From positions 1-64,000 of the forward strand of contig CANKZR010000003.1 in the NCBI GenBank assembly GCA_947488625.1: a DNA stretch of 64,000 bases. The letters run 5' to 3'. The position numbers and the translations under genes are program-made. The stretch comes from an uncultured Sphingomonadaceae bacterium. Lineage in GTDB: Bacteria; Pseudomonadota; Alphaproteobacteria; Sphingomonadales; Sphingomonadaceae. The notes beneath the pieces were generated by a model. It saw nothing but the letters and a program-made list of their open reading frames with translations. It made no database searches and was not told the origin of the DNA. This document shows, piece by piece, positions 25,720 through 62,884 of the stretch. Numbering within the stretch: the stretch's first letter is position 1; every line of letters starts with the position of its first letter.

Positions 25720-27903
25720 CTATCCGGGCACTGCAGCATCGGATCGTTGCTGCTTTGTGTTCTCGCCTTCGGCCCATGATGCAAGGAGGCTTTCGGTTAC
25801 CTCGCGTGCGCCGTGTATGGCGCCTTCGATAAACGATACGCCGGTCGCATCGCCCAGGACCTGAACCTGGAAACCGCACTCCTTCAATTGCTCGGCAAGC
25901 GACAGGTCCTCCTGTGCGCCCTTCGCGATTATAACCTGGTCGGCGGTAAAAGACGTGTCGTCACCTTGTGAATTGCGGAATTGAACCGCCTGTTCGCTGA
26001 TTGCGATATCGCGAGCACCGGCGTGCATTTCCACTGCATGTTCCTCGAGTTCGGCCAGCAATCGCATCCGTCGAACCAGCGGCAGGCCCTTGCCGAAGCG
26101 CGCAACGTCATCAATCACCGCCACGGTGCGGCCCCGCTCGTGAAGAAACTCTGCAAGTTCCAGGCCCACCAGCCCCCCGCCGATGATTGCTATCCTCTTG
26201 CCCAGCGGCATCCAGGCTCTGCTCGCCCGGCGGACGAAATCGGGCTTGGCCGAAAGGCCGGTCAGCGCGCCGATTTTCAACGCCATGCGAGAGCCCGGGG
26301 CGGTCTTTTCCCGCAGTCTTTCGGATAGCTCTCCAAACATCATCTGACGCAGATCGTCGCCCGAGAGAACGTGCGGCAGCTCGCTACCGGGCAAGTCGAT
26401 GCCCTGACGCCTGGCCCCCGTCGCGACGATCACATGGTCAGGGTTCAGTTCCGCAATCAGGTGCGGGGTGGCCTGGGTGGAAAGCCGCAGATCTACGCGA
26501 CCTGTCTCGACCTGGGAGCGCAGCCAGGCGAGCAGCCGTCCGTTTGGTTCATAAGCCAGGGATGCAAAGCGCAATGTCCCGCCAAGACTATCGGCGCTTT
26601 CGATCAAGGTGACCCGGTCGATCCGGTCCGTCAACCTGCGAGCGGCTTCCATCCCTCCGGGTCCACCCCCGATCACGACGACATGCCCGGCCTGAAGGGG
26701 CTGTTCCGGGCGTGCCTTCTCCAGTTCATGGCCGAGTTCAGCATTAACCGCGCAGCGCACCGGCTGGCCCATGTAGATGGCACTGATGCAGGTGTAGCAA
26801 TAGATGCATGGGCGCACGGCAGTTTCGTTTCCATGGGCCAGTTTGTTCGGCAAAGCGGGATCGGCAAGCAGCTTGCGGCCCATCGAGATGAAGTCGGCTT
26901 TGCCTTCGCCGATCACGCTATCCCCCAGCAGCGGCTCTACCCGGCCGGACGCTATCACGGGTATGGAAACGGCTTTCTTGATCGTGGCAGAAGCCGACAA
27001 GTTGAAACCTTCGATGTGCGGCGTGTGCGATTGCGAGTGCAGCTTTGCATTTCCGGCCTCGTGGTAGGTGGTCACCGTGATTGCATCGGCGCCTGCCGCT
27101 TCAACCGCGCGGGCATGAGCGATGGCGTCGTCCACCGTGATGCCCTCCTTACCGACTTCGCGTGAGTCGAGCTTGACCCAGACCGGGAAGCTGGGGCCCA
27201 CGGCCTCGCGCACCGATGCCAGGATTTCGCGCAGCAGGCGCATCCGTCGTTCGCGGGTGCCGCCGTACCCATCTGTTCTGGTATTGGTGGCTGGCGACAG
27301 GAACGAAGAGATCAGGTAACCGTGACCGGCGTGAATCTCGATACCATCGAAATTCGCCTCGGCAGCGCGGATCGCCGCCGCTCCGAATTGTGCTACGGCT
27401 TCTTCAATCTCGGCGGTTTCGAGAACCTTGATCTCGGGCACTGCGAGCCCCTGCAGCGGTGCCAGTTCCTCGGGCAGGAAATAGTCTGTAAAGTTCCCGG
27501 TAGGAGGGGGCGGGACGGACGGCGCCCAGAGACCGTGCCCCCAACGGGCATGGGAATATGCTGCGACGAGCCCGCCATGATGGAGTTGTGCTGCAATCTT
27601 GGCGCCGTGAACGTGAACACGTTCGGTGAGCCGCTTCAGACCCGGAATATAGCGATCCTGTGATATCGCAGTCTGCCTGGCGCTGACGCTGCCGACCGGC
27701 CAGGCCACGCCGGTCACGCCGGTAATTATCAGTCCTGCGCCGCCTTTCGCCTGTTCCTCATGGTAGGCAATCAGCCGGTCGGAGACGCTTCCATCGTCAT
27801 CGGACAGGCTGACGCCCATCGCGGTAACGGCGATGCGATTGCGCAATTCCATCGTGCCAATCTGACCTGGCGACAGAAGGTGGGGAAAGCGGTTGGATGT
27901 CAT
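25720..27903 (-). CDS. FMN/FAD/4Fe-4S oxidoreductase of the 2,4-dienoyl-CoA reductase (FadH/BaiCD-like) type
   Basis: A 727-residue three-part flavoenzyme. Residues 1-360 are an Old Yellow Enzyme barrel with IEIHAGHGYLISSFLSP and NTRTDGYGG. A cysteine cluster CIYCYTC...RC near 365-385 fits the 4Fe-4S site. The remainder has two dinucleotide folds, VVVIGGGPGGMEAARRL and IAIIGGGLVGLELAEFL. Relatives reduce conjugated double bonds in dienoyl-CoA or in bile-acid/steroid intermediates. It is divergent from the sulfatase gene, sharing a 180-base promoter region with a TGCGTA-type site, and so probably belongs to the catabolic locus. Confidence 0.88.
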   Translation of the reverse strand: MTSNRFPHLLSPGQIGTMELRNRIAVTAMGVSLSDDDGSVSDRLIAYHEEQAKGGAGLIITGVTGVAWPVGSVSARQTAISQDRYIPGLKRLTERVHVHGAKIAAQLHHGGLVAAYSHARWGHGLWAPSVPPPPTGNFTDYFLPEELAPLQGLAVPEIKVLETAEIEEAVAQFGAAAIRAAEANFDGIEIHAGHGYLISSFLSPATNTRTDGYGGTRERRMRLLREILASVREAVGPSFPVWVKLDSREVGKEGITVDDAIAHARAVEAAGADAITVTTYHEAGNAKLHSQSHTPHIEGFNLSASATIKKAVSIPVIASGRVEPLLGDSVIGEGKADFISMGRKLLADPALPNKLAHGNETAVRPCIYCYTCISAIYMGQPVRCAVNAELGHELEKARPEQPLQAGHVVVIGGGPGGMEAARRLTDRIDRVTLIESADSLGGTLRFASLAYEPNGRLLAWLRSQVETGRVDLRLSTQATPHLIAELNPDHVIVATGARRQGIDLPGSELPHVLSGDDLRQMMFGELSERLREKTAPGSRMALKIGALTGLSAKPDFVRRASRAWMPLGKRIAIIGGGLVGLELAEFLHERGRTVAVIDDVARFGKGLPLVRRMRLLAELEEHAVEMHAGARDIAISEQAVQFRNSQGDDTSFTADQVIIAKGAQEDLSLAEQLKECGFQVQVLGDATGVSFIEGAIHGAREVTESLLASWAEGENTKQQRSDAAVPG

Positions 27904-35910: not shown

Positions 35911-37098
35911 TTAGTTCGTCGCAAGCGTGCGCCGTTCCCGGTTCATGCGGTAGAGGCTGAAGAAAAAGGCCATAAGCGTGAAACCTCCTACGGCCAGAAA
36001 TGCGCCGTGCCGCGTGAGCACGACGGTCATCGGCTCAATCAGGAGCGGATTCAGGAAATCACCTAGGAAGACGGCCGAATACAACATGGCAATCGCTCGA
36101 TCACGCTGTTCGTCGCTGGCGGTTTCGGCAAGAGTCGTGATCATGTGAGGGAGGAAGAGCCCGGCGGCAACGCCGGTGATACTGCACCCGATTGCCGCAA
36201 CCAGGCCGGAATAAGAAAATCCCAGCATCACCAGTCCAATCGTCCAAATGGCGAATACCAAGGGGAAAATCCGCTGCAAGCCGATCAAGCCCGCCAGGCG
36301 GCCATAACCAAACCCCCCGATCATCGCTCCGACCGATGCCATGACGGCGATCCTGCTTACGGCAGTAGGATCGGAAATTCCTATCTCCCCAAGCAGGAAG
36401 GATAGCTGCGTCGTGGTCATCATCAACACCACGCCGAATGCGACGATAACGACGTAGAACGGCCAGAGCGAAAGCAGGCCAGGTGCTGGCTTGGCAGGAG
36501 CCGGGACAACTTCTGCGGCCCCACCGGTCCTCACGAAGCCCTCGCCACGCGTCAGCCATGCAAGACCGAGCATGACGAATGCGATTGCATATAGCAGGAA
36601 GGGCAGGCGCCAACCGCCAAGCGATCCCAGGTAGCCGCCTATCAGGATACCGCCGATACCCCCGACCGAACCGAGAGCCCCCTTGATGCCCAGGAACTTT
36701 GCGCGCGCCACGGAATCGAAGCGGCTGGCAATGAGGGCAGTAGAGGCAATACCGACAAACGAGGCAGCGATGCCGAGAATGAATCGCACCCCCAGCAGCG
36801 AGGGCGCGCCGGACAGAAAATATCCCGCAGAGCCCGAAATGCCGTACAGAACAAGCCCTACGATCAGCAGGCGATAGGTCCCTACCATGCGCACAGCCGC
36901 TGTGCTGAGCAACCCGCCAGCAATAAGGCCGAGGGCCGGGGCAGTCATCACGGCCTGCGAGAGCTGCGCGCCGCTGGTGCCTCCACCGAATGATTGCGCC
37001 AGCAGCGGCAGCACCGGAATCAGCACCACCAGGACGAGCGCGGTCGTTGCCGAACCGCACAGCAGGACGGCAAGCAGCAGCCGTTCGCGAGCGGTCAT
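35911..37098 (-). CDS. MFS transporter
   Basis: A 395-residue membrane protein with about twelve hydrophobic segments in two halves and a charged central loop (residues 190-215). It fits the major facilitator superfamily, multidrug or metabolite type. Its ATG overlaps the thiolase-like stop by four bases, making it the last gene of the ten-gene operon. It probably imports a pathway substrate or exports an intermediate; direction cannot be told from sequence. Confidence 0.9.
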   Translation of the reverse strand: MTARERLLLAVLLCGSATTALVLVVLIPVLPLLAQSFGGGTSGAQLSQAVMTAPALGLIAGGLLSTAAVRMVGTYRLLIVGLVLYGISGSAGYFLSGAPSLLGVRFILGIAASFVGIASTALIASRFDSVARAKFLGIKGALGSVGGIGGILIGGYLGSLGGWRLPFLLYAIAFVMLGLAWLTRGEGFVRTGGAAEVVPAPAKPAPGLLSLWPFYVVIVAFGVVLMMTTTQLSFLLGEIGISDPTAVSRIAVMASVGAMIGGFGYGRLAGLIGLQRIFPLVFAIWTIGLVMLGFSYSGLVAAIGCSITGVAAGLFLPHMITTLAETASDEQRDRAIAMLYSAVFLGDFLNPLLIEPMTVVLTRHGAFLAVGGFTLMAFFFSLYRMNRERRTLATN

Positions 37099-38267
37099 GC
37101 GCCGTCCAGTATCAATCCGCTTGTCGGAACGCCTGTGCCGGCGGTGACAAGCACAGGACCATCGCCCGGCACCTGATTGACCGAGGTTCCGCGTACTTGC
37201 CGGACAGCTTCCGAGATGCCGTTCATGCCGTGGATGTAAGCTTCGCCCAGTTGTCCGCCATTGGTGTTGACGGGCAACCGCCCGCCAATTTCCAGATTGC
37301 CTTCGCGCACGAAGTCCTTCGCCTGGTTCCTCGGTGTGAAACCGAAAGATTCAAGCTGGGTCAGCACGTACGGCGTGAAATGGTCGTAAAGGGTGGCAGT
37401 GCGAATATCGTCTGGCCTGAGCCCCGCCTGGTCGAACAGTTGACGCGCCACCAGTTCCATTTCGGGAAGCCGGGCAATTTCCTTGCGGTAATAGCTGGTC
37501 ATCATCTGCTGGTCGTCGGCGGCACCCTGTGCGGCTGCACGGATGATGGCCGGCGGTTGGCGCAGCTTCCGGGCGTAATCGGTGCTTGTCACGACGATGG
37601 CCACCGCGCCGTCGGATTCCTGGCAGCAGTCGAGAAGGTGCAGCGGTTCCACGATCCATTTTGATTGCTGATGATCGTCCAGCGTTATCGGTTGTTCGTA
37701 GAACCACGCGGCGGGATTGTTTGCCGCGTGCTTGCGACTGGCGACGGAAACCCGGCCGAAATCTTCGGAGGTTGCTCCACTTTCGTACATGTATCGCTGG
37801 GCGCCCATGGCCACCCATGACGCCGGAGAAACCAGGCCGAAGGGCACGTAATACCCATAGTGCGAGGATTCAGCAGTGGGGACAGGGGGCGGGGTGTGAC
37901 CGGTGCCGAAACGGTATTGCGATCGTTCGTTCATGGCGCGGTAGCAGACCACCACGTTCGCAACGCCGGTGGCGATGGCCATGGCCGCCTGCATGACGGG
38001 CGCGCATGCTCCGCCACCGCCGTAGTGAATCCGGCTGAAGAACTTCAGCTCTCGCCCGCCGATATTCCGGAAGACCTCGATCTCCGGATTGTTGTCCATC
38101 GTGAAGGTGGAAAGGCCATCGACCTCCTCGCGGTCGATCCCGGCATCGTCGAGTGCAGCCGTGATCGCTTCCACGGCCAGCCGCATTTCGGACCTGCCGC
38201 TGTTCTTGGAAAATTCGGTCGCGCCGATACCGGCAATCGCGGCGACATTGCTCAACGAGGATGTCAT
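37095..38267 (-). CDS. Ltp2-like thiolase-fold protein, probable retro-aldolase
   Basis: A 390-residue SCP2-thiolase-like protein. Instead of the thiolase nucleophile segment it has HYGGGGACAPVMQAA near 81-95, and it carries two tyrosines in conserved contexts, ATLYDHFT (Tyr294) and GEAYIHG (Tyr344); from memory, tyrosines at about these positions are catalytic in the actinobacterial Ltp2 aldolase. That enzyme, bound to the DUF35 part of ChsH2, cleaves the hydrated side-chain CoA ester. Start at 38267 overlaps the MaoC stop (ATGA); the longer frame is rejected. The partner ChsH1- and ChsH2-like genes lie directly upstream. Confidence 0.85.
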   Translation of the reverse strand: MTSSLSNVAAIAGIGATEFSKNSGRSEMRLAVEAITAALDDAGIDREEVDGLSTFTMDNNPEIEVFRNIGGRELKFFSRIHYGGGGACAPVMQAAMAIATGVANVVVCYRAMNERSQYRFGTGHTPPPVPTAESSHYGYYVPFGLVSPASWVAMGAQRYMYESGATSEDFGRVSVASRKHAANNPAAWFYEQPITLDDHQQSKWIVEPLHLLDCCQESDGAVAIVVTSTDYARKLRQPPAIIRAAAQGAADDQQMMTSYYRKEIARLPEMELVARQLFDQAGLRPDDIRTATLYDHFTPYVLTQLESFGFTPRNQAKDFVREGNLEIGGRLPVNTNGGQLGEAYIHGMNGISEAVRQVRGTSVNQVPGDGPVLVTAGTGVPTSGLILDGA

Positions 38268-38683
38268 GATGTTTCTCCAAGCTCGAGCGAGACCGTCGCC
38301 CTGACGTGCTCGCCTATCGAGTTGGTTCCCTTGACGTCGATCTTTACTTGACCCTGGCTTGCTTCCACGACCTCGCCGCTCAGCGTCATGGTATCGCCCG
38401 CGAAATTGGGCGCGCCCAGCTTGATGTCGACTGCGGTGATCCGACCGCCTGGGCCGCACCAGTCGGTGACGTAGCGTTGCACCAGACCATTTGTCGTAAG
38501 GATGTTCATGAAGATGTTCGGGACGCCGGTCGCTTTCGCCGCAGCCATGTCGTGATGGACGTTCTCGAAGTCGTTCGTGGCGAGTGCCGCTGCAACGATG
38601 GCAGAAGCGGTTACCGGAAATTCAAGCTCGCCCAGTTTCTGGCCGACCTCGACGTCGCTCATGGTGTTTGCCTGTGTCTTCAT
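38264..38683 (-). CDS. Small MaoC-domain hydratase subunit (ChsH1-like)
   Basis: A 139-residue single hot-dog domain. NDFENVHHD near residues 37-45 supplies the Asp and His of an R-hydratase active site. ChsH1 of mycobacteria is a similar short MaoC protein that pairs with ChsH2 to hydrate the 2-enoyl-CoA of a C3 steroid side chain. Both junctions are four-base ATGA overlaps (with the acyl-CoA dehydrogenase upstream and the Ltp2-like gene downstream), so stoichiometric synthesis is likely. Confidence 0.88.
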   Translation of the reverse strand: MKTQANTMSDVEVGQKLGELEFPVTASAIVAAALATNDFENVHHDMAAAKATGVPNIFMNILTTNGLVQRYVTDWCGPGGRITAVDIKLGAPNFAGDTMTLSGEVVEASQGQVKIDVKGTNSIGEHVRATVSLELGETS

Positions 38684-39813
38684 GTCAGAGCCTCCGTCCG
38701 TCCTTCGGCAATTTCCTTGCCGATTTCGGCCGCCATCGGATTTGCGCCGCCCAGTTCTTCGGAGATGTGGATGGCGTGAAGGAAGAAGCGATGGATCGGA
38801 TAAGTGATATCCGCACCCGTTCCGCCATGCAGGTGCTGCGCGGTATGAACTACGCGGTGCCCGCCCATCGCGGCCCAGTACTTGGCTGCGGCAACGTCAG
38901 CGCTGCTGGATGCGTCGTGGTCGATCTGCCATGCAGCGAGAAGGGCGCTCGATCGCATGGCTTCCACGTCGATGAAGGCGTCCGCGGCTCTTTGCTGCAC
39001 GGCCTGCATCGAACCCAACGGCTTGCCGAACTGTATCCGTTCGCTTGAATAGGCCGCCGTCCGGCGCAACGCTTCGTTTGCGATCCCGACCTGTCGCTGC
39101 GCCAGCGCCACCCGGCTGCGTGCAACGAGATCGGCGATGACATCGCGTCCCGTTTCGATGCTGCCGACCACCGCGTCCCCGGCGAGTTCGACATTATCGA
39201 GTGTTACCAGTCCCAGCGGCTCGCCACTTGTCGATACCTGCGCCTCGACCGTCAGACCGTCGGTGCCCACTTCGACAATGAACAGCGCCGGGCCGCCTTC
39301 GGCCTGGGCCGTCACGATGAATGCATCGGCTTGGGGTGCATAGGGTACGGCTACCTTCGTGCCGGACAGTTTGTACCCGTTTCCGTCTGCCTCCGCCTTC
39401 ACCATGGGCGTCAACGTATCGTGGTTGCCGCATTCCGTGATCGCGGCGGTCATGATGGCGTCGCCGCTGATGATACGCTCCAGCCAGGCATCGCGCTGCT
39501 CGGCAGAGCCATGCCTGTCGATCGTCATTGCCGCCATGGCGATCGTGGCGGTCAACGGAACCGGAGCCAGTGTACGGCCTTGTTCTTCCAGCAGAAGGCC
39601 GAGTTCGACCATGCCGAACCCCATTCCTCCCCCCTGTTCCGAAATGGACATTCCCAGAAGACCGGCGTCAGCCAGCGTGGACCACAAGTCCTTGTCGTAG
39701 GCCGCACCGTCTTGCGGGGGTTCGGGCACAGTATCGGCATTGGTCGCATCGTCGAGGATGCGGGCGGCAAGACTGCGCATTTCGCGCTGATCGTCGGAAA
39801 GGTTGAAATCCAT
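38680..39813 (-). CDS. Acyl-CoA dehydrogenase, subunit of a heteromeric pair (FadE28-like)
   Basis: A 377-residue acyl-CoA dehydrogenase fold, with MDFNLSDDQREMRSLAARIL at the N-terminus, TECGNHDTLTP in the place of the usual TEPxxGSD substrate loop, and HLHGGTGADITYPIHRFF near the C-terminus, typical of the second subunit in alpha2-beta2 steroid dehydrogenases. Start taken at ATG 39813, preceded by GAGGAT; the four-codon TTG extension overlaps the previous gene's stop and is less likely. Works with the 391-residue paralogue two genes upstream to oxidise the side-chain CoA ester. Confidence 0.88.
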   Translation of the reverse strand: MDFNLSDDQREMRSLAARILDDATNADTVPEPPQDGAAYDKDLWSTLADAGLLGMSISEQGGGMGFGMVELGLLLEEQGRTLAPVPLTATIAMAAMTIDRHGSAEQRDAWLERIISGDAIMTAAITECGNHDTLTPMVKAEADGNGYKLSGTKVAVPYAPQADAFIVTAQAEGGPALFIVEVGTDGLTVEAQVSTSGEPLGLVTLDNVELAGDAVVGSIETGRDVIADLVARSRVALAQRQVGIANEALRRTAAYSSERIQFGKPLGSMQAVQQRAADAFIDVEAMRSSALLAAWQIDHDASSSADVAAAKYWAAMGGHRVVHTAQHLHGGTGADITYPIHRFFLHAIHISEELGGANPMAAEIGKEIAEGRTEALT

Positions 39814-39821
39814 GGGTATCC

Positions 39822-40763
39822 TCAATTCAGGCGAAAAGCCGGCAGCAGGTAGTCAGGTTCGACTTCGATGAAATCGACCTCTACCGCCTGGCCGATCGAA
39901 ACATCTTCGGCGTCTGCATCAATCAGGTTGGCGATGATCCGGACGCCTTCTTCCAGTTCAACCAGCACCACGGGCAGGGGATAGTCGAAGTCCGGCAGGC
40001 GCGGCTGGTGCATCACGACGAAGCTGTGAATGGTGCCGCGACCGCAGGATTCGACAATGTCGAACTCCAGGGAACCGCTTACCGGGTCCATCGGACTGGG
40101 CGGATGCCGCAGTCGGCCGTCGGTCGATTGGAACAGGAGCTTGCGATTGTTGATCCCTTCCCAGAAGAAGGCGTTGTCATGCGTGATCGCGGGCCGGGGA
40201 TGGCTGTAGCCGCCCGATGCGTCATCGGATTTACCCTTGTCGGCTTCGGGCTGCGACAGGTTCGGTTTGAACTTCAACACCCTGAAGGTCATCCGGCCCA
40301 CGCGCTTGTCTTCCGCATCCGTGAATTCGAACACGAGCGTGACGAAGTGGCCTATGCCAAGGCCCGTACGTTTCTCTTCCGAGACTGAATCGACGGTAAC
40401 CGACGCGGTCACGACGTCCCCAGGCACCAGATAGCGGTCGTAGGATTGGCCGGTGTTGGTGGCAACAACGCCAGTGTAGCCGGCATCGTCGAAAAGATTG
40501 AGCACCGCCATACTGTCTTCCGCGGTACGCCCCCCGGGCCGGTACGGAGCCATCGTCCATACCTCGAGCATGGCGGGCGGCGCGACGATCCCGGGATGAC
40601 CCGCAGCGCGCGCCGCAGCATCGTCAACGTAGATCGGGTTCGTATCGCCCATCGCTTCGCACCAGCGGCGGATCATGGGTACATTAACCGGATCACGTGC
40701 CGTGGTAGGAGCGGTGGCGGCTTTCCCGACCCATTCGCGGGCTTTTTCCAGAAGGTCGGTCAT
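39822..40763 (-). CDS. MaoC-like / DUF35 OB-fold fusion protein (ChsH2-like)
   Basis: A 313-residue fusion. Residues 1-160 are a MaoC/FAS1-type hot dog with GDTNPIYVDD, in which the His of the hydratase dyad is replaced by Tyr, so catalysis should come from the partner ChsH1-like subunit. Residues 190-313 are a DUF35 domain: FFWEGINNRKLLFQ, the OB-fold GRGTIHSFVVMHQP and a late VEVDFIEVE. The zinc-ribbon cysteines expected after LLFQ are missing. In actinobacteria the DUF35 part binds Ltp2. ATG 40763 shares one base with the upstream stop (TGATG). Confidence 0.87.
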   Translation of the reverse strand: MTDLLEKAREWVGKAATAPTTARDPVNVPMIRRWCEAMGDTNPIYVDDAAARAAGHPGIVAPPAMLEVWTMAPYRPGGRTAEDSMAVLNLFDDAGYTGVVATNTGQSYDRYLVPGDVVTASVTVDSVSEEKRTGLGIGHFVTLVFEFTDAEDKRVGRMTFRVLKFKPNLSQPEADKGKSDDASGGYSHPRPAITHDNAFFWEGINNRKLLFQSTDGRLRHPPSPMDPVSGSLEFDIVESCGRGTIHSFVVMHQPRLPDFDYPLPVVLVELEEGVRIIANLIDADAEDVSIGQAVEVDFIEVEPDYLLPAFRLN

Positions 40764-41938
40764 CAGCGCGCCGCCCTCGGCATGCCGAGGCCGACTTGCG
40801 CCACCATGTCGCGCAGGACTTCGGCGGTGCCGCCGCCAAACGTGTTGATCTGGCACTTGCGGTACTCGCGTTCGATTTTCCCGCGCAGCACGCTGCCCGG
40901 CGAGTCGTCGCGAACAAGGCCGGCAGGTCCGATTACGTCCAGCAGCAGCCGCATGACCTTGATCACGCTCTCCGTGCCGAACACTTTGAGGGCGCTGGCA
41001 AGGTCGGGGCTGGTCTTGCCTTGGGCAACCTCGGCGGCAACGCGATTGCCCATGACTTCCACAGCGCGCAGCAAGGCGTAAGCTTCTCCGAAAGCTGCCT
41101 GAACCCAGGGGAGGGAAATCAGGGCGCTACCGTCTGCTCCTTTGGTGTTGCGGCTCCATTCGACGGTAAGGTCGAAGCATCCCGAGGCGCCATAAGTCAG
41201 CGCGGCAAGACCGATGCGTTCGTGGTTAAGCTGCTCGGCGATCAGCCGCCAGCCGCCATTGACTTCGCCGATGACCATGTCCGCCGGAACGCGCACGTCC
41301 TCGTAATATGTCACGTTCGTGCGGAAGCCCCCGACCGTCCAGATCGGTGAAACCGAGAAGCCCGGCAGGCTGGTGTCGAGCATGAAGATCGTGATGCCCT
41401 TGTGCGGCTTTGCATCGGGATCGGTTCGCGCGGCAAGGAAGATGTAATCCGCACCTTCGGCGCCGCTGGTGAAGACCTTCTGCCCGTTGATGACGTATTC
41501 GTCGCCATCGCGAACGGCACTGGTCTTAAGGTTCGCGAGGTCCGTGCCCGCACCGGGTTCGGTATAACCGATCGCGAACAGCAATTCGCCGCTTGCGATG
41601 CGCGGCAATATCTCCGATTTCTGCTCATCGGTGCCCAGCCTCATGAGGGCGGGGCCGACGGTGTTTACCGTTACGAACGGGAAGGGGGCTTCGGCAAGAA
41701 CGAGCTCTTCCAGAAGGATTTTCTGCGTCAGCGGATCCAGCCCGCGCCCGGAATATTCCTTCGGCCAACCGGGGGTGAGCCAGCCATCCTTGCCCATCTG
41801 CTTGATAACCGCACGATATTCCGGCCCGCTTTCGGCATCGCGAGTAGCCTCGCGTACTTCGGGCGTCATGATGCGATCAAGGTACTCGCGAAATTCCTGG
41901 CGCAGTGCCTTTTGCTCTGCGGTGTAATCGATATCCAT
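40763..41938 (-). CDS. Acyl-CoA dehydrogenase, subunit of a heteromeric pair (FadE29-like)
   Basis: A 391-residue dehydrogenase with WPKEYSGRGLDPLTQKILLEELVLAEAPFP, the substrate/FAD loop GYTEPGAGTDLANLKT, and a C-terminal INTFGGGTAEVLRDMVAQ containing the glutamate at the usual catalytic-base position. These are marks of FadE26/FadE29-type steroid dehydrogenases acting as pairs. It shares one base with the synthetase stop (TGATG) and one with the ChsH2-like start. Paired with the 377-residue paralogue. Confidence 0.9.
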   Translation of the reverse strand: MDIDYTAEQKALRQEFREYLDRIMTPEVREATRDAESGPEYRAVIKQMGKDGWLTPGWPKEYSGRGLDPLTQKILLEELVLAEAPFPFVTVNTVGPALMRLGTDEQKSEILPRIASGELLFAIGYTEPGAGTDLANLKTSAVRDGDEYVINGQKVFTSGAEGADYIFLAARTDPDAKPHKGITIFMLDTSLPGFSVSPIWTVGGFRTNVTYYEDVRVPADMVIGEVNGGWRLIAEQLNHERIGLAALTYGASGCFDLTVEWSRNTKGADGSALISLPWVQAAFGEAYALLRAVEVMGNRVAAEVAQGKTSPDLASALKVFGTESVIKVMRLLLDVIGPAGLVRDDSPGSVLRGKIEREYRKCQINTFGGGTAEVLRDMVAQVGLGMPRAAR

Positions 41939-43752
41939 CAGTCGGCTCCTTGAAATTGCGCAAAGCCCAGGCGATCCAGCGCCTCTTTAGACAATGGCAC
42001 GTATGCCCCGGCGTTCGCATCGGCGACGAACAGCTTATCGTCGCCAACGCGATCCGGAGCGTATCCTTCACGCTGCAGTTCGACCTTTCGCAGCTTGAAC
42101 GTGGTGGTGATGTCTGCGTTGGTGGAAATGCGCACGAACACCGGCACGGCGTAATCGGCCAGCTTGTCGCGTGCGAAACGGTAGAACGACGCGGCATCGA
42201 AGTGGTCCGGATCGTCATAAGTGAGCGCAACCATTCCGGCACGGCCTTCTGTTTCCGGAATTTCCACGCCGTAGACGTTGACGGTCGAGGGCCCGGAAAA
42301 TGCCGACAGCGCGATCTCGACCTCAGCAGTCGCCACGTTCTCGCTTTTCCAGCGAAACGTGTCGCCAACGCGATCGACGAAGTAGAAGTAATCGTCCTCG
42401 TCGAAGGTAACCAGGTCTCCCGACCGGAACCAGGCGTCGCCCGGTTTGAACAGATTGCGTATGAGTTTATTCTCGGTTGCTTCGGCGGAGGTATAGCCTT
42501 CGAAATATCCTGAAACGCCGGTTCCCCCCAGGACCTCTGCCACGAGTTCGCCAACTTCGTTCGGCCCCGCTTCCACCGGAGATCCATCGTCACGGCGGAC
42601 ATGGGTTTCTCTTTCGAGATCCCATTTCAGGATGCGGATGTTGGTCTTGTCCGGGTATGGCAGGCGCCCCACGGACCCTATCTTGTTGTCGACATTGGTG
42701 ATGCCGTAGTTCGCTTCTGTCGAACCCAGGCCTTCGATGATGTTTTCTACGCCGAAGCGGTCCTGGAAGGCTTTCCAGACATCGGGTCGCAGCCCTGCAC
42801 CGCACATTACGCGCAACGTATGGTTGCGATCTTGCGGGGATGGTTCGGGCGTCAACAGGTAGCGGATGACCTCGCCGATGTAATAGGTTGCCGTGATGCC
42901 GTGCCGCCGCACGTCTTCCCAGAAGCCCGAGGTGCTGAACCTGCGCCGCAACACGAACGGACGTCCGGCCCCCAGCGCAACGGAGGGCACCACCATTCCG
43001 CCTGCCCCATGATAAAGTGGCAGAAAGCAATAGAAGGTATCGTCGGCGCCGAAATTCATCAGGCCAATCATCATTTCGCCTGCATTGATGAATCGCAGAT
43101 TACTCATCCGCGCTGCTTTGGGCAGACCTGTCGTTCCCGAAGTGAAGATATAATAGAGCGGATCGCCTGTCTCTATGCCTTCGCGCAGAGTGCGATCCGG
43201 ACGGTTTTCCGAAGCTGCCGACGTCATGGCGTTCCAGTCGCGCCAATCGCTGTCGCTGCGATCCGATCCTTCCTCCGATTGCTCGAATATCATTTCTGGC
43301 AGGTCTGCTGCCGGCAGGCCCGCAACAGATGAAGCCAGTTCGGACCCGACGATGATCGCTCTCGCATCGACCTGATCCAGCGCGTGCGCCAGTATCTCGT
43401 CCGTTGCGCTGGTGTTGATTAGGGCGGTGATGATGCCAGCCTTCGAAAGCCCCAGCCAGGTCAGAACAAATTCGGGCCGGTTCAGCATCAGCAGCGCGAC
43501 GACATCACCCGGTTTCAAACCGGCTTTTACCGCTGCATTGGCAATGCGGTTGGCGTGCCGGTCAGCCTGGGCAAAGGTAATCGCCTGATCCTCGAACAAA
43601 ATGAAATCGACTTCGGCAGAATCCTCGGCCCGTTCCTCCAGCCTGTCGGCAACGGTGTATTCGCCGTCGCGTGAGTAGGACATTACCCGCTGGTAGCCAC
43701 GCATGAGGCGGCCCATGGTTTCCTCGCGTGAGGGTACTTCGAAATTGTCCAT
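41938..43752 (-). CDS. Acyl-CoA synthetase (FATP/FadD-like)
   Basis: A 604-residue AMP-forming ligase. The P-loop is YIFTSGTTGLPKAARM, followed by YHGAGGMVVPSVALGAGRPFVLRRRFSTSGFW, then the hinge-side FRSGDLVTFDEDDYFYFVDRVGDTFRWKSENV. It resembles FadD6/FadD17-type proteins that activate long-chain or steroid side-chain acids. Start at ATG 43752, whose A is the last base of the upstream stop; the TTG one codon earlier is rejected. It supplies the CoA ester used by the following dehydrogenase, hydratase and aldolase. Confidence 0.92.
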   Translation of the reverse strand: MDNFEVPSREETMGRLMRGYQRVMSYSRDGEYTVADRLEERAEDSAEVDFILFEDQAITFAQADRHANRIANAAVKAGLKPGDVVALLMLNRPEFVLTWLGLSKAGIITALINTSATDEILAHALDQVDARAIIVGSELASSVAGLPAADLPEMIFEQSEEGSDRSDSDWRDWNAMTSAASENRPDRTLREGIETGDPLYYIFTSGTTGLPKAARMSNLRFINAGEMMIGLMNFGADDTFYCFLPLYHGAGGMVVPSVALGAGRPFVLRRRFSTSGFWEDVRRHGITATYYIGEVIRYLLTPEPSPQDRNHTLRVMCGAGLRPDVWKAFQDRFGVENIIEGLGSTEANYGITNVDNKIGSVGRLPYPDKTNIRILKWDLERETHVRRDDGSPVEAGPNEVGELVAEVLGGTGVSGYFEGYTSAEATENKLIRNLFKPGDAWFRSGDLVTFDEDDYFYFVDRVGDTFRWKSENVATAEVEIALSAFSGPSTVNVYGVEIPETEGRAGMVALTYDDPDHFDAASFYRFARDKLADYAVPVFVRISTNADITTTFKLRKVELQREGYAPDRVGDDKLFVADANAGAYVPLSKEALDRLGFAQFQGAD

Positions 43753-44597
43753 CAAACCTTCTCGCGCTTGAGAAACGGGATCAGCCCGTCGAGAAACGCA
43801 TCGTTCTCGTCACCGGCAACCATGTGGCGCGCACCTTCGACTTCGACGACCTGGCCATGCGGCAGCAGTTCGCGAAACCGCCGCACACCGGCGTCGGACA
43901 CGATCTCGCTTTCGGATCCTCGCAACAGCAACAGGGGAATGTCGAGCGACAGCACGGCATCGGTCAGGCGTTCATTCATCTTGTCCATGTCCCACCCGTC
44001 CTGCGGAGCGACGAAGGCCGGGTCCCAGTGCCAGTACCAGCGTCCGTCGTCACGCTGCCGCATGTTGCGGGAGAGGCCATCCAGCTTTTCGGGGCGAGGC
44101 CGATGGGGCAGGTAGTCCGCGATCGCGTCCGCAGCCTCGTCGAGAGTATCGAATCCGTATGACGTCCCACGCATGAAACCGACGACCTGCGCGCCGCCCT
44201 TGGCTTCCATCCACGGGACCACATCGACCAGCACGATCGACTTTACCTTGGCGGCCGGATGCTCGCTTGAGGCGAGCAACGAGGCAAGCCCCCCCAATGA
44301 TGCTCCGACCAAAGCAGGCGGGGTGTCGAAGGTCTCGATCACATGGCGCAGGTCGTCGGCAAAGGCGCCAAGCTCATAGCGGCCATCTTCAGCCCAATCG
44401 CTTTCACCGTGTCCGCGAAGATCGACAGCGACCGTAAGGAAGCCATGACCCGCCAGCGTATTCTGGGTAGTGGACCAGGAGTGCCTGGTCTGGCCTCCGC
44501 CATGCAGCAGCAGAACGGGGTCCCCCTGCTCTGGCCCTGCAACGGTCGCACGCAAGGTCACCCCGTTGGCACCTTCGAACGTGGTCGTCTCTTGCAT
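43752..44597 (-). CDS. Alpha/beta hydrolase
   Basis: A 281-residue alpha/beta hydrolase with LLLHGGGQTRHSW (oxyanion side), nucleophile GASLGG, an acid in the LLLLRGSESEIVSD region and the histidine in VEGARHMVAGD, so the triad is complete. Relatives include meta-cleavage product hydrolases and esterases. ATG at 44597, two bases after the previous stop, is preferred over a GTG at 44609 without a ribosome site. In this operon it could open a lactone from the Baeyer-Villiger step or cleave an ester, but no substrate is shown. Confidence 0.87.
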   Translation of the reverse strand: MQETTTFEGANGVTLRATVAGPEQGDPVLLLHGGGQTRHSWSTTQNTLAGHGFLTVAVDLRGHGESDWAEDGRYELGAFADDLRHVIETFDTPPALVGASLGGLASLLASSEHPAAKVKSIVLVDVVPWMEAKGGAQVVGFMRGTSYGFDTLDEAADAIADYLPHRPRPEKLDGLSRNMRQRDDGRWYWHWDPAFVAPQDGWDMDKMNERLTDAVLSLDIPLLLLRGSESEIVSDAGVRRFRELLPHGQVVEVEGARHMVAGDENDAFLDGLIPFLKREKV

Positions 44598-44599
44598 GT

Positions 44600-45406
44600 T
44601 CACGTCCACAGTGCGGATGCCGTTGCGGTATCGGCTTCGCGTACGCCGCGCACGCCAAGTTGCTTGCGCGCCTCCTCGATCGGAAGATCGAGCACGTCCT
44701 CGTACTTCATCAGGTACAGCGGATCGGACTCGCGCCCGACCTTTGCGCCACGCTCCATGCCGTCCTGAACGGTGAGCCAGGTTTGCGGATAATGCAGCAC
44801 GGCCCGCGTGATGATCCGGGTCGATCCCAATATCGAGAATGCCGAAAGCTCCCCTGCCAGTTCGGCTGGCATGTGAACGAACAGGTTCGTCAACCGCATA
44901 TAATACGGCACGATTTCGCCGATAAAGTCGAAACCGCCACCGCCCAGTATATGTTCGAAATCGTGGGTCTGGCCCGACCGAAGCTGGAAGTACTCGAAAT
45001 CGTTCTTCGGTTCGAAGCGCGGGACGATATCGACCGCAAGATCGTTTTCCATAAGTTGCGTGTAGAAGGCGTTGCCCACCGTTCCGTCCGCATATTTCGC
45101 CAGATCGTCGCGTTCGAAGGTGGAAACGAAGCCTTCGTTGAACCAGGCATCCAGCGCGGGGTTGCGGGCGCGTTCTTCGGCAAACAGGGCGTTGATGTGA
45201 TCGACGTCCTGGATCTCGCGCATGATCATCACCAGCTTGATCGAATCCGACGGCGTGGGCACGTCCGCGCCGTTGCGCCGCAAGAGATGCGTGGATACCC
45301 AGTCGCGCAGACGCGGATCGTTGAGATATTTGGAGGAACTGACCAGCACGCTGCTGTCGGTCTCGACCTCTTCGATGCCCTTCATCAGATAGGAATAATC
45401 GTTCAT
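44600..45406 (-). CDS. Coq4-family protein
   Basis: A 268-residue Coq4-like protein. The metal-binding signature HDxxHx11E is complete: His148, Asp149, His152 and Glu164 in THDFEHILGGGGFDFIGE, followed by a hydrophobic helix. COQ4 proteins act in ubiquinone synthesis, where eukaryotic COQ4 is reported to carry out oxidative decarboxylation at C1 of the ring. Here the gene lies inside a CoA-dependent catabolic operon, with two-base gaps on both sides, so a role on an aromatic or polycyclic catabolic intermediate is possible. ATG 45406 follows GGGAG. Confidence 0.82.
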   Translation of the reverse strand: MNDYSYLMKGIEEVETDSSVLVSSSKYLNDPRLRDWVSTHLLRRNGADVPTPSDSIKLVMIMREIQDVDHINALFAEERARNPALDAWFNEGFVSTFERDDLAKYADGTVGNAFYTQLMENDLAVDIVPRFEPKNDFEYFQLRSGQTHDFEHILGGGGFDFIGEIVPYYMRLTNLFVHMPAELAGELSAFSILGSTRIITRAVLHYPQTWLTVQDGMERGAKVGRESDPLYLMKYEDVLDLPIEEARKQLGVRGVREADTATASALWT

Positions 45407-45408
45407 CT

Positions 45409-47232
45409 TCAATCTCCCGCTTGCCGGCGCTCAGCGCTCGGCGATGCTTTCAATTCTCCGGGGATCGCGACCTGGTGCGACAGCAGGAACTGCCCCATTC
45501 CCTTCGCGGCCGGATCGAAACTCGTCCCCTGCAATATCCCCCCGTCCAGAGAGGCGTGAACCACGAAATTCAGCGCGTGAATTCCGGGCACGTGAAACCG
45601 TTCAACGCGCGGCGCCTGCCGTTCTGCCGAGATATGGGCATAGCAAGACGATACTGCGTCCTCGCTCAGCGCGCGGGCAATCCAAGGCAGGAATTCGGGC
45701 TTTCGCGCAATGACTGCGACGTTGAAAAGGTTGCCCTTGTCGCCGCTGCGTGTCCACGCAAGGTCGCGCAATTCAACTTCGACCAGGCCGTCGGCGTTTG
45801 CCGGGGTTTGCAGAGCAGGGGGGATGGTCGCCGCCGTGGAATGTCCGTCGCCATTAGGCACGGTCCAGCTTTCATCACCAAGAGTGACGGTGGCCGTCAC
45901 CTCGCCCCGCTCGAGCAGAAATGCAAAGACGCCGGTCAGGGGCAGTACGGTCGTCGCCAGGTTGATTCCGGTTCCGGGTGCCATCGTCGTGATGCCGGAT
46001 GCTTGCTCGCGGGCGAACAATCCAGCCCCCTGCATGGTGGCATGATCGGCAGTCAGCTTCATCACCACCTCGCGGGAATTACGTCCGGGTGCGTCGGGGC
46101 CGAACGCGCTCTCGTCTCCGAAGACCGCAATTGAAGTGGCAGTGAAATCGGGCATGCCCGCGCGTTCGAGCAACGTTCGCGCCCTTGCGATCAGCGCCTT
46201 GCCCTGTCGTCTCGCCTTCGCGCTCGCATCTCTACCTACAAAGGGGGTAATGGCAGTAGTGCGCCAGCCCAGTTCGGTTGTCGCACTCACCTTGAGATAT
46301 GGGCTGGGCGGACGACCTTTCGCGCCCGTAACACGCACCCGGTCAGGGCCGACATCATCGATCTTCACATCACTGAAGTCGCAGCAGACATCCGCGACGA
46401 TGTAATCGGCAGGATCGCTGACTTCGTAAAGCAATTGTTCCGCTACGGTCCCGCGGCTCACCAGGCCGCCGGTGCCGTGGGGCTTGGTGATGACGACCGA
46501 CCCGTCCGACGAACATTCTCCGATTGGGAACCCGATCGTCTCCCAGCCTTCGACGGTTTCCCAGTCGGTAAAGGTTCCGCCCGTTATCTGGGTGCTGCAT
46601 TCGAGCAGATGGCCTGCCAGCGTGCCGGCAGCCAGAAGGTCGTATTCGTCATGTTTCCAGCCGAATTCGTGAATGAGCGGGCCCAGAACGATGGCACTGT
46701 CCACGATCCGGCCGGTGACCACGATGTCCGCTCCGCAATCCAGCGCTTCGGCTATCGGGAATGCACCGAGATAGGCATTGCATGTCAGGATTGAGTCCGG
46801 GAACGGCGCGCCTGAAAACATATCGCTCTTTCCGGCGCTGCGAAATTCCTCCACCCGTTCGATCAGATCGTCGCCCGAAACGGCGGCCACGGTTAGGGAC
46901 AGATTCTGCTTATCGATCAGCGCTTCGATTTCGCGTGCCAAGGCGCGTGGATCGAGTGCCCCTGCATTGGCAACGATCCTGATGCCTTTGTTCGCGATCT
47001 GAGCGAGATGCGGTCCTACGTGCACGTTGAGAAAGTCGGGCGGATAGGTGGCTGCCGGATCGGCTTTGTGTTGCAGGCCGAGCATGCCCATGCTCGCTTC
47101 AGCAAGGTAGTCGAAGACCAGATAGTCGAGATCGCCATCTGCCAGCAGCTGCGGGACTCCCAAAGCGCTGTCGGCAAAATAGGCCGAGCCGCCGCCGATG
47201 CGAACGACCTTATCTGTCGCCGGTGCACTCAT
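45409..47232 (-). CDS. AtuA-like protein (DUF1446 plus C-terminal AtuA domain)
   Basis: A 607-residue protein whose N-terminal three quarters match DUF1446 (VVRIGGGSAYFADS, LDYLVFDYLAEASMG, NAGALDP, ADIVVTGRIVDSAIVLGPL, YEVSDPADYIVADVCCDFSDV) and whose last 120 residues form the separate AtuA-like domain (LRDLAWTRSGDKGNLFNVAVIAR). AtuA is required for acyclic terpene use in Pseudomonas but has no proven reaction. It is first in the ten-gene operon, which lacks the biotin carboxylase genes (atuC/atuF) that accompany atuA in that pathway, so the role here is probably different. Confidence 0.9.
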   Translation of the reverse strand: MSAPATDKVVRIGGGSAYFADSALGVPQLLADGDLDYLVFDYLAEASMGMLGLQHKADPAATYPPDFLNVHVGPHLAQIANKGIRIVANAGALDPRALAREIEALIDKQNLSLTVAAVSGDDLIERVEEFRSAGKSDMFSGAPFPDSILTCNAYLGAFPIAEALDCGADIVVTGRIVDSAIVLGPLIHEFGWKHDEYDLLAAGTLAGHLLECSTQITGGTFTDWETVEGWETIGFPIGECSSDGSVVITKPHGTGGLVSRGTVAEQLLYEVSDPADYIVADVCCDFSDVKIDDVGPDRVRVTGAKGRPPSPYLKVSATTELGWRTTAITPFVGRDASAKARRQGKALIARARTLLERAGMPDFTATSIAVFGDESAFGPDAPGRNSREVVMKLTADHATMQGAGLFAREQASGITTMAPGTGINLATTVLPLTGVFAFLLERGEVTATVTLGDESWTVPNGDGHSTAATIPPALQTPANADGLVEVELRDLAWTRSGDKGNLFNVAVIARKPEFLPWIARALSEDAVSSCYAHISAERQAPRVERFHVPGIHALNFVVHASLDGGILQGTSFDPAAKGMGQFLLSHQVAIPGELKASPSAERRQAGD

Positions 47233-50150: not shown

Positions 50151-50215
50151 ACCGCGAAGACGCTACTGCCAATCCACGCGCGTAGTGGGAGCGCGTAGTA
50201 CAGGGACGCGTCGTT

Positions 50216-57549: not shown

Positions 57550-58650
57550 TCAGATTTCGACCTTTTCGTCGACATAGAACTGGCTGTACCATTTGCGGAA
57601 TTTCCCGATCGGGCCGTCACCGTCGCAAACCAGCGCATCGGGCAGATATTTCTGCCGATCCCAAACGACCTTGTCCTGGTCGAATTGCTTGCAGATATCC
57701 TTGATGATTGCCTTGGCGGCCCCGCCTTGCGGTCCGTCTTTCTGTGCCTTGGGCTGCGTGAAACAGAAGCGTGCGACGGCGTGATCCTTTTCGACCGGTG
57801 TTATGCATGAGATCAGCACGGTCTCGCAGATACCGGTGAAGCGGGTGTAACTCTGCCCGGGGCCGACGCTTCGATATGAAATTTCGCCCTTCACCACGCC
57901 GCGCGGCGTCCCCAGGTTGACGAACAGCCGCGCGCCGCGTTCGGGACCGCCGTCTCCCCAGTCGAACTCGTAATCCGGGACATCCCCGGCTCCGTGAATG
58001 TATTTGAAATGCGCCGTATCGACACCGTTTTCGGCCATGTTCTGGAGTGACCCCCAGACATTCCATTCAAAGATCTGGTAGTCGGTCCAGTCTTCATCCG
58101 TCGCTTCGGGCACGTGAGCCAGATCCCATTGCGGCTCTTTGCCTTCCGGATGATACCAGAACCATATCCAACGGTTGGCTTCAGCCACGGGCCATTGCCG
58201 TTCGCACGGACGTTTCACCTGGGGAGGAATGCGCTTGGCATAGTCAATCTCCTCCACCACGCCTTCACCATTGTACTTCCAGGAATGGAAAGGGCATTCG
58301 AGAAGGTTGCCGGTCACCTTGCCGCCGAAGCCCATGTGCGCGCCCAGATGGCGGCAATAGGCATCCAGCATTCTTACATCGCCATCCTCACCGCGCCAGA
58401 CGACGAGATCGGTCGAGAAATACCGCAGTGGCTTTACCTCGCCCCGGCCCAGTTCGTCCGAAAGCAACGCAGGATACCAGCCGCAGGGGAAGGGCAGGTC
58501 GAGGTTGCGGTCCTCCACACTCGCCCGGTTCTTCGGCTCGCTAAGCCGCCATTCTTCAAGCTCTTCCCGGCTCATGTTTTCGAGCATGCGCCAGACGAGA
58601 GCCGGCGGGGTGCGGGCATCTTCGTGGGCGGAGTTCGTTTCGGTATGCAT
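57550..58650 (-). CDS. Rieske non-haem iron oxygenase (KshA/Daf36-like)
   Basis: A 366-residue oxygenase component. The Rieske cluster ligands are in CRHLGAH (Cys99, His101) and CPFHSW (Cys119, His122), and the mononuclear iron site is in ENGVDTAHFKYIHG (Asp211, His214, His219). Spacing and the surrounding GNLLECPFHSWKYNGEG resemble KshA and the steroid desaturase Daf36/Neverland group. It would hydroxylate or desaturate a ring carbon, using a separate ferredoxin reductase not found in the window. ATG 58650 follows GGAG; the GTG one codon before is less likely. Confidence 0.9.
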   Translation of the reverse strand: MHTETNSAHEDARTPPALVWRMLENMSREELEEWRLSEPKNRASVEDRNLDLPFPCGWYPALLSDELGRGEVKPLRYFSTDLVVWRGEDGDVRMLDAYCRHLGAHMGFGGKVTGNLLECPFHSWKYNGEGVVEEIDYAKRIPPQVKRPCERQWPVAEANRWIWFWYHPEGKEPQWDLAHVPEATDEDWTDYQIFEWNVWGSLQNMAENGVDTAHFKYIHGAGDVPDYEFDWGDGGPERGARLFVNLGTPRGVVKGEISYRSVGPGQSYTRFTGICETVLISCITPVEKDHAVARFCFTQPKAQKDGPQGGAAKAIIKDICKQFDQDKVVWDRQKYLPDALVCDGDGPIGKFRKWYSQFYVDEKVEI

Positions 58651-58732
58651 CACTTGCTCTCCATTCCGAGGGCCCTGCTTGCCATAGCGTGCAGAACGCT
58701 GGGCGAGATCTCATTTTCGAATGGCTTGCCCA

Positions 58733-62771: not shown

Positions 62772-62792
62772 TTTACGCCGCATAACTACGCA
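62772..62792. promoter_or_regulatory. Two TACGC words between SDR and KstD-like gene
   Basis: TTTACGC (62772-62778) and TACGCA (62787-62792) are direct repeats with a start-to-start spacing of about 13 bases, in the 138-base spacer between the divergent SDR and KstD-like genes. They fit the shared promoter word set. Confidence 0.4.
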
Positions 62793-62884
62793 TGCAGTTG
62801 ACAGTTTGGCAAGATAAGCTGCAAAACGCGTTGTCAATATCAAGGGAAGCAGCAGTTTTGTCCAATATTGAAAAGAGCGCGGAT

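What the first reader, a model, noticed from the sequence alone, without database searches (positions are those of the whole stretch)
35911..47232. An igr-like side-chain operon in an alphaproteobacterium, joined to AtuA and Coq4-like genes
Seen: ten minus-strand genes; all but one junction are ATGA or TGATG overlaps or two- to eight-base gaps, in the order AtuA, Coq4-like, hydrolase, FadD, acyl-CoA dehydrogenase, MaoC-DUF35, acyl-CoA dehydrogenase, MaoC, Ltp2-like, MFS. Known: FadE28-FadE29, ChsH2, ChsH1 and Ltp2 of the mycobacterial igr operon remove the C3 side chain of steroids by dehydrogenation, hydration and retro-aldol cleavage. Inferred: this operon does the same chemistry on a steroid- or terpenoid-like CoA ester, with extra AtuA and Coq4-type steps not described in igr.
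Basis: partly seen in the sequence, partly recalled or inferred. Interest (0 to 1): 0.78.

Follow-up and report, generated by a model that had tools for sequence, protein, structure and literature searches.

The report
Steroid side-chain operon with AtuA–Coq4
A bacterium of the Sphingomonas family carries a ten-gene operon whose core looks like the known machinery for cutting the last three carbons off a steroid side chain, preceded by two genes of unknown role (AtuA and a Coq4-like gene) that tend to travel with steroid degradation in this family and could be an undescribed step.

The parts
45409..47232 (-). AtuA-family protein, 607 aa; predicted fold of the N-terminal domain matches a citramalate lyase
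44600..45406 (-). Coq4-like protein, 268 aa, with HDxxH-x11-E motif
43752..44597 (-). alpha/beta hydrolase, kept in 8 of 8 family operons; substrate unknown
   Evidence: Abhydrolase_1 90 bits
41938..43752 (-). FadD-type acyl-CoA synthetase, proposed C22-steroid acid CoA ligase
   Evidence: NCBIfam PRK08279 692.6 bits over cut-off 625; a FadD hit over 450 bits lies in 13 of 80 Ltp2 loci
40763..41938 (-). steroid-type acyl-CoA dehydrogenase subunit A (called ChsE1 in my scripts)
   Evidence: 4x28_A 407 bits and 6wy8_B 400 bits against 152 for the next other entry; tree
39822..40763 (-). ChsH2-type MaoC-DUF35 protein; MaoC half lacks the hydratase His; DUF35 half lacks the four zinc-ribbon Cys
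   Evidence: 4wnb_A 167 bits, 6ok1_B 103 bits
38680..39813 (-). steroid-type acyl-CoA dehydrogenase subunit B (called ChsE2 in my scripts)
   Evidence: 6wy8_A 253 bits, 4x28_D 220 bits, next 112; tree
38264..38683 (-). ChsH1-type MaoC hydratase subunit with Asp38-x4-His43
   Evidence: 4wnb_B 119 bits; dyad in 73 of 73 rows
37095..38267 (-). Ltp2-type retro-aldolase with YDHF (Tyr294) and Tyr344
   Evidence: 6ok1_A 568 bits, next 162; roles of these residues from PMC12329534 (passages)
35911..37098 (-). MFS transporter, last gene; an MFS of this cluster ends 4 of 8 family operons
   Evidence: MFS_1 105 bits
34122..35741 (-). neighbour: FMO/Baeyer-Villiger-like flavoprotein
   Evidence: FMO-like, PtlE-like 268 bits, under cut-off
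25720..27903 (-). neighbour: OYE-type flavoenzyme, BaiCD-like
   Evidence: NF041087 405 bits, under cut-off 825
57550..58653 (-). neighbour: KshA-like Rieske oxygenase
   Evidence: KshA_C 111 bits
58733..60394 (-). neighbour: CoA ligase, CasG-like
   Evidence: NF052580 350.6 bits, under cut-off 750
62792..64000 (+). neighbour: KstD-like dehydrogenase, 5' part (runs to contig position 64588); KshA follows at contig 64767-65846

Best explanation
This is a steroid side-chain operon of the igr (ChsE-ChsH-Ltp2) type inside a steroid-catabolism island of a genome of the Sphingomonas family. Proposed route: FadD activates a C22 steroid acid (3-carbon side chain) with CoA. The two-subunit dehydrogenase (A with B) introduces the C17(20) double bond. 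ChsH1-ChsH2(MaoC) adds water at C17. Ltp2 with the DUF35 domain of ChsH2 then cleaves the C17-C20 bond by a retro-aldol reaction, giving propionyl-CoA and a 17-ketosteroid. Family membership and kept residues are shown here; the reactions are inferred from characterised homologues. AtuA and the Coq4-like protein form an accessory module recruited to the front of the operon. From its fold AtuA is most likely a retro-aldol-type C-C lyase for a branched (tertiary) hydroxy acid. The Coq4-like protein is most likely a metal enzyme that binds a hydrophobic acid, perhaps an oxidative decarboxylase. Both would prepare a variant side chain or product for the core; this accessory part is inference at about 0.3.
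For: For all five core proteins the best PDB chains are steroid side-chain enzymes by wide margins (the hydratase and aldolase chains bear those names or are named in PMC12329534, while the steroid role of 4x28 and 6wy8 is recalled). YDHF and Tyr344 are kept at the same numbers as in TcLtp2. ChsH1 has Asp-x4-His and ChsH2's MaoC half has Tyr in place of His. Dehydrogenases A and B lie in clades (SH-aLRT 99 each) made up, but for two actinobacterial rows each, of subunits within 4.3 kb of an Ltp2; the additional pair found further along the same proteobacterial loci lies outside. Steroid island: KstD-like gene and KshA (199 bits) at contig 62.8-65.8 kb, a KshA-like and a CasG-like gene in the window, HsaA/HsaC/HsaD-like cluster on contig C1 (365, 205 and 169 bits, all under the curated cut-offs). 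In C. testosteroni mutants of ORF40-44, the corresponding set, block propionyl removal (PMC12502768, abstract and passages). AtuA-Coq4 module: 12 of 17 AtuA places of at least 48% identity lie within 600 bases of a same-strand Coq4-like gene, 0 of 9 below that; 27 contig lengths are shared between the top 120 hits of each against 0.3 expected; Coq4-like presence tracks KshA, seen again in 2 genomes of another family.
Against: No activity, expression or substrate data. The C. tardaugens igr-like operon is not needed for growth on cholate or deoxycholate (PMC12882949), so the substrate of such operons is open. No Sal-type C5 aldolase was seen in this genome: only two Ltp2-family matches at E <= 1e-5, and the second is Ltp2-like with YDNF; so how C22 acids would arise is unclear. 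The ring-degradation homologues score under NCBI's cut-offs, and the HsaC-like and HsaB-like ones score better to non-steroid families. AtuA and Coq4 are absent from 3 of 8 operons, and 6 of 14 Coq4-bearing family genomes have no Ltp2 of 75% identity or more. ChsH2's zinc ribbon is lost, which may alter the aldolase cleft. The AtuA fold match is 14% identical at rmsd 4.5, and a shared fold does not prove a reaction; a sequence profile of AtuA found nothing in PDB. The Coq4/KshA association uses related genomes, and the 150-bit limit was chosen after seeing the scores.
Confidence: 0.82

Rival explanations
1. The operon degrades a terpenoid or another polycyclic acid that only resembles a steroid side chain, with AtuA as in acyclic terpene utilisation.
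Against: The core enzymes match steroid enzymes far better than other acyl-CoA enzymes. KstD/KshA/Hsa-like genes are present. No biotin-dependent carboxylase (a hallmark of the atu route, recalled) among the 30 window ORFs scanned with Pfam, all from 23.4 kb on. Coq4-like genes track KshA.
Confidence: 0.08
2. AtuA and Coq4 serve another part of steroid catabolism (ring degradation or uptake processing) and merely share the promoter; they are not side-chain enzymes.
For: AtuA-Coq4 pairs and Coq4-amidohydrolase pairs sit away from igr genes in many of the fetched stretches, some Coq4-amidohydrolase ones near KshA and HsaA. Three family operons do without them.
Against: Close coupling at the operon front in three genomes of the survey and the uncultured Sphingomonas locus L008, and Coq4 alone in two more, in each just upstream of the hydrolase-FadD run.
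Confidence: 0.45
3. The operon removes a C5 bile-acid side chain (Sal/Shy type) rather than a C3 chain.
For: CasG-like ligase and BaiCD-like flavoenzyme nearby.
Against: The aldolase has the YDHF and Tyr344 of Ltp2, not YDCY and Gln of Sal (residues from PMC12329534); 9myr_A (taken as CtSal) scores 149 bits against 568 for Ltp2; the dehydrogenases avoid the additional pair of the proteobacterial loci; a bile-acid degrader of the order does not need its igr-like operon for cholate (PMC12882949).
Confidence: 0.05

Closest known systems
ORF40-44 of Comamonas testosteroni TA441 (ChsH2, ChsE1, ChsH1, Ltp2, ChsE2), PMC12502768
   Same: Same five enzymes, with the run H2-dehydrogenase-H1-Ltp2 shared; mutant data there show propionyl removal.
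   Different: Here the other dehydrogenase gene precedes ChsH2 instead of following Ltp2; FadD and a hydrolase lie upstream; AtuA and Coq4 open the operon; the DUF35 zinc ribbon is lost. By gene order (compared on Comamonas sp. L064, not TA441) my subunit B corresponds to ORF41, named ChsE1 there, and A to ORF44, named ChsE2.
igr operon of mycobacteria and Rhodococcus (cyp125, chsE1, chsE2, chsH2, chsH1, ltp2; order recalled)
   Same: ChsE/ChsH/Ltp2 module and residues; the five Rhodococcus ChsH2 rows also lack the zinc-ribbon Cys.
   Different: No P450 in the ten genes; added FadD, hydrolase, AtuA, Coq4 and MFS.
igr-like operon EGO55_03105-03125 of Caenibius tardaugens, PMC12882949
   Same: An alphaproteobacterial igr-like operon.
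   Different: The paper's main text holds neither 'AtuA' nor 'Coq4'; its sequence was not compared here.
Citramalate lyase, PDB 9evf (entry title only seen)
   Different: 14% identity; AtuA has an extra C-terminal ferredoxin-like domain; substrate unknown.
Coq4 (PDB 6e12, 3msq; human COQ4 reported as an oxidative decarboxylase, PMC11495197, passages)
   Different: Sits in a catabolic operon, and related genomes hold up to 8 such copies; role in ubiquinone synthesis not tested.

Membership tests
ChsE-ChsH-Ltp2 (igr-type) C3 side-chain module | Ltp2 aldolase with YDHF Tyr294 and second Tyr344 | tested here: met
   both residues at the same numbers; YDHF/Y in 95 of 105 rows
ChsE-ChsH-Ltp2 (igr-type) C3 side-chain module | ChsH2 with MaoC and DUF35 domains, MaoC half without catalytic His; ChsH1 with Asp-x4-His | tested here: met
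ChsE-ChsH-Ltp2 (igr-type) C3 side-chain module | Two unlike acyl-CoA dehydrogenase subunits that group with the Ltp2-linked pair | tested here: met
   21 of 80 loci picked by hand plus the window, SH-aLRT 99 for both clades; M. tuberculosis FadE28/29 themselves not in the tree
ChsE-ChsH-Ltp2 (igr-type) C3 side-chain module | Activity on 3-oxo-pregnene-20-carboxyl-CoA | not testable with these tools
   None
igr operon in the strict actinobacterial sense | cyp125 within the operon (recalled) | tested here: not met
   No P450 among the ten genes; the genome's three P450 matches lie on contig C1
Sal/Shy C5 side-chain aldolase | YDCY motif and Gln in place of Tyr344 | tested here: not met
AtuA family (PF07287) | Pfam match over cut-off with C-terminal AtuA_ferredoxin domain | tested here: met
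Acyclic terpene (atu) pathway | Geranyl-CoA carboxylase genes beside atuA (recalled) | tested here: not met
   No carboxylase among the 30 window ORFs scanned with Pfam, from 23.4 kb on; the rest of the genome was not searched for it
Coq4 family (PF05019) | Coq4 fold and HDxxH-x11-E motif (motif recalled) | tested here: met
Coq4 family (PF05019) | Role in ubiquinone biosynthesis | not tested
   Gene context is catabolic

The most novel reading that the evidence does not exclude
AtuA and the Coq4-like protein are an undescribed two-protein system of steroid degradation in the Sphingomonas family and at least one other alphaproteobacterial family. AtuA would be a C-C lyase of the citramalate-lyase fold, and Coq4-like paralogues would be metal-dependent partners that handle hydrophobic acids. 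Copies would be deployed for different side chains or ring acids, with AtuA replaced by an amidohydrolase in some, and one copy recruited to the front of an igr-type operon.
Probability: 0.3. Interest if true: 0.78.

Novelty: new variant of a known kind. Interest (0 to 1): 0.52.

Why it matters
Side-chain degradation in Sphingomonadaceae is described in a 2021 review as unknown, with no Ltp2 homologues in strain Chol11 and its bile-acid-degrading relatives (PMC8399759, passages). This operon shows that other members of the family do hold the full C3 module. If the AtuA-Coq4 link is real, it gives a testable role to two protein families whose bacterial function I could not find described (AtuA, catabolic Coq4 paralogues) and a marker for steroid degraders in metagenomes.

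Tried and rejected
Plasmid origin: one record with a 5% match only. Promoter and terminator scan: no more hits than in shuffles. Sequence relatives of AtuA in PDB: none at E <= 1 by phmmer or E <= 10 by profile. First gene calling by longest ORF gave antisense ORFs and was dropped for a codon-score caller trained on window genes. HsaD as a steroid marker: the family rings in 13 of 14 control genomes, so I lean on KshA_C, which rings in 1 of 14 and over its cut-off in 0. A Foldseek listing of AtuA against PDB was never accepted by the busy machine, so the fold match rests on VIA-align alone; most of its rows after the first match only about residues 320-435.

Rows left out or grouped: of 18 genomes with Ltp2 matches at E <= 1e-70 I counted as igr-bearing only the 8 at 75% identity or more; the four at 57-62% have no ChsH1/ChsH2 beside them, and the six below 45% were not inspected. 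The dehydrogenase tree used 21 of 80 loci picked by hand. In the Coq4 tree the L008 row was dropped, and its 34 rows come from stretches I chose, most of them from the places. Rows hold repeats (L007 = L142, L009 = L146; also L002 = L089). The 150-bit KshA limit is post hoc; with all matches of 80 bits or more the split is 14 of 14 against 8 of 135. The c8 cluster is called Amidohydro_3 from one member. The five comparison genomes were picked by hand.
Full report
OBSERVATION. The ten minus-strand genes exist at the stated limits. The next genes on the same strand are a GMC oxidoreductase 253 bases upstream and an FMO-like gene about 170-200 bases downstream. The window is the start of contig C3 of a 3.2-Mb genome rated 100% complete. 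Three surveyed genomes of its family have contigs of the same length as records of Sphingomonas jatrophae, S. laterariae and S. sanxanigenens.

CORE. By sequence against PDB, dehydrogenase A scores 407 bits to 4x28_A and 400 to 6wy8_B (next other entry, apart from 6wy9 of the same protein, 152), dehydrogenase B 253 to 6wy8_A and 220 to 4x28_D (next 112), the MaoC-DUF35 protein 167 to ChsH2 and 103 to the DUF35 chain 6ok1_B, the small MaoC 119 to ChsH1 (next 37), and the thiolase-like protein 568 to 6ok1_A (next 162). The PDB names of 4x28 and 6wy8 say only acyl-CoA dehydrogenase; from recall they are steroid enzymes, 4x28 being ChsE4-ChsE5, so PDB alone does not single out ChsE1-ChsE2. A tree of 70 dehydrogenases from 21 hand-picked loci and the window places A and B in two clades (SH-aLRT 99 each) with the subunits nearest Ltp2 in Comamonas, Pseudomonas and actinobacterial loci. 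Two actinobacterial rows in each clade lie 7-10 kb from Ltp2; the additional pair found further along the proteobacterial loci falls outside. Labels: my scripts call A 'ChsE1' and B 'ChsE2'; by gene order B matches ORF41 of C. testosteroni, named ChsE1 in PMC12502768, and A matches ORF44. Tyr294 and His296 of YDHF and Tyr344, given as catalytic base, oxyanion hole and acid of TcLtp2 in PMC12329534 (passages), are kept at the same numbers; Sal has YDCY and Gln. ChsH1 has Asp38-x4-His43, as in 73 of 73 rows; the MaoC half of ChsH2 has Tyr at the His position. In C. testosteroni, mutants of the corresponding five genes accumulate C22 side-chain intermediates (PMC12502768, abstract and passages).

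STEROID CONTEXT. KshA_C matches: contig 65151-65753 (199 bits), window 57574-58158 (109), two weaker on C1; the family rings over its cut-off in 0 of 14 control genomes. A KstD-like gene precedes the first (528 bits to PRK12844, cut-off 789). In the window lie a CasG-like ligase (350.6, cut-off 750), a BaiCD-like flavoenzyme (405, cut-off 825) and a HsaB-like flavin reductase (148, cut-off 230; its best match is a p-hydroxyphenylacetate hydroxylase reductase, 210). HsaA-, HsaC- and HsaD-like genes lie together on C1 (365, 205 and 169 bits, cut-offs 450, 450, 400; the HsaC-like one scores better, 231, to biphenyl-diol dioxygenase). All are under the curated limits, so they show kinship, not equivalence. 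Only two Ltp2-family matches reach E <= 1e-5 in the genome; the second is 47% identical with YDNF and sits beside a DUF35 protein and a large CoA-transferase.

COMPARISON. Of 80 Ltp2 loci from public genomes (best 80 of 580), 62 hold best hits to all five core genes in the stored flanks; AtuA appears in 2, Coq4 in 4, the hydrolase in 7 (4 of them weak), a FadD over 450 bits in 13. Flanks are 10 kb at most and 49 of 80 loci have 20 kb or more, so these counts are lower bounds. In 149 genomes of the family, Ltp2 of 75% identity or more occurs in 8, the window's included. All 8 have hydrolase-FadD-A-H2-B-H1-Ltp2; AtuA+Coq4 precede it in 3 (window, G084, G057), Coq4 alone in 2 (G071, G139), neither in 3 (G107, G061, G133). 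The uncultured Sphingomonas locus L008 also has both; in L010 a distant Coq4 lies apart. So AtuA and Coq4 are optional.

AtuA-Coq4 MODULE. Coq4-like genes occur in 14 of 149 genomes, in up to 8 copies. Of these 14, 12 hold a KshA_C match of 150 bits or more, against 4 of 135 others (Fisher 1e-12); at genus level 10 of 12 against 3 of 84. The threshold was set after seeing the scores, and the genomes are related. All 8 igr-bearing genomes have a Coq4-like gene, against 6 of 141 others. Of 337 genomes of the class (a few of the same family), 3 have a Coq4-like gene: the window's genome and two of another family, with 7 and 6 copies and 7 and 10 KshA_C matches; five hand-picked comparison genomes have no KshA_C match. 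These two have no Ltp2 match above 48% identity. Of five stretches fetched around their Coq4-like genes, two show AtuA beside it (order reversed in one), one the amidohydrolase and two neither. AtuA occurs in 20 of 149; of 17 places at 48% identity or more, 12 lie within 600 bases of a same-strand Coq4-like gene, 1 of one on the opposite strand, 4 do not (one of them at a contig end); of 9 places below, none. Among the top 120 protein hits of each, 27 contig lengths coincide, against a mean of 0.3 and a maximum of 3 in 2000 jittered trials. Of 34 Coq4 copies in the stretches I chose, 11 adjoin AtuA, 9 an Amidohydro_3-type protein and 14 neither; the AtuA label is clustered on their tree (4 changes, shuffled mean 9.5). 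HDxxH-x11-E is kept in 34 of 34.

A VARIANT FEATURE. Four zinc-ribbon Cys of the ChsH2 DUF35 domain are present in 60 of 75 rows, but none in the window, G084/L007, L008 and G057 and one in G071, G139/L009, L010 and G107; five Rhodococcus rows also have none, and G061 and G133 keep all four (rows include repeats). PMC12329534 (abstract) says the zinc finger of the Sal partner keeps flat cholesterol rings out, so the loss may hint at planar sterol rings; this is speculation.

LITERATURE. An igr-like operon in C. tardaugens is published, with no effect of its deletion on cholate or deoxycholate growth (PMC12882949, abstract, section 13, passages; 'AtuA' and 'Coq4' do not occur in its main text). 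The 2016 survey found a subset of side-chain genes in two Sphingomonas strains (PMC4810484, passages). A 2021 review found none in strain Chol11 and its bile-acid-degrading relatives (PMC8399759, passages); neither text holds 'AtuA' or 'Coq4'. Searches for AtuA with steroid degradation, Coq4 with side-chain terms, AtuA with Coq4 (0 papers) and Coq4 with Sphingomonas (2 papers on coenzyme Q, listing only) gave no report of this module; the library lacks most subscription journals.

VERDICT. A real operon, correctly read in its core; a known kind of system with an optional front module for which I found no report. The core function is likely (0.82 overall); the role of AtuA and Coq4 is the open and interesting part.

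Noticed in passing
39822-40763 (ChsH2 residues 214-229): The DUF35 zinc-ribbon Cys are lost in the window and its closest Sphingomonas relatives, and also in five Rhodococcus rows, but all four are kept in 60 of 75 ChsH2 rows.
   Followed up: partly
L089:12806-16778 (contig C1, about 2004.8-2008.8 kb): A second Ltp2-like aldolase (47% identity, YDNF instead of YDHF) beside a stand-alone DUF35 protein and a large CoA-transferase, with a P450 and a KshA-like oxygenase about 8.5-11 kb on; a DUF35-Ltp2-like pair also occurs in G107 and G011.
   Followed up: partly
L148, L150, L151, L154, L156, L158, L169, L170, L171: Coq4-like paralogues paired with an Amidohydro_3-type protein, in L151 and L169 near KshA and HsaA; an alternative partner to AtuA.
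   Followed up: partly
window as a whole, against G014 and G103: Two genomes of the same genus have no Ltp2 (E <= 1e-70), Coq4-like, AtuA or KshA_C match, so the island is patchy within the genus.
   Followed up: no
25720-34018 and 47486-56576: Further catabolic-looking genes around the operon: BaiCD-like flavoenzyme, sulfatase, TonB receptor, GMC oxidoreductase, DUF1214, sulfotransferase, HsaB-like flavin reductase.
   Followed up: partly
L142, L145, L146, L147, L161: In these relatives a TonB receptor and an AraC-type regulator lie next to the operon; the window has a TonB receptor of the same cluster beyond the FMO gene but no regulator of that cluster.
   Followed up: no
G084:C6:1603545-1605353 and G050:C2:163482-165191: AtuA homologues whose matches contain one internal stop codon, so some copies may be decaying.
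   Followed up: no
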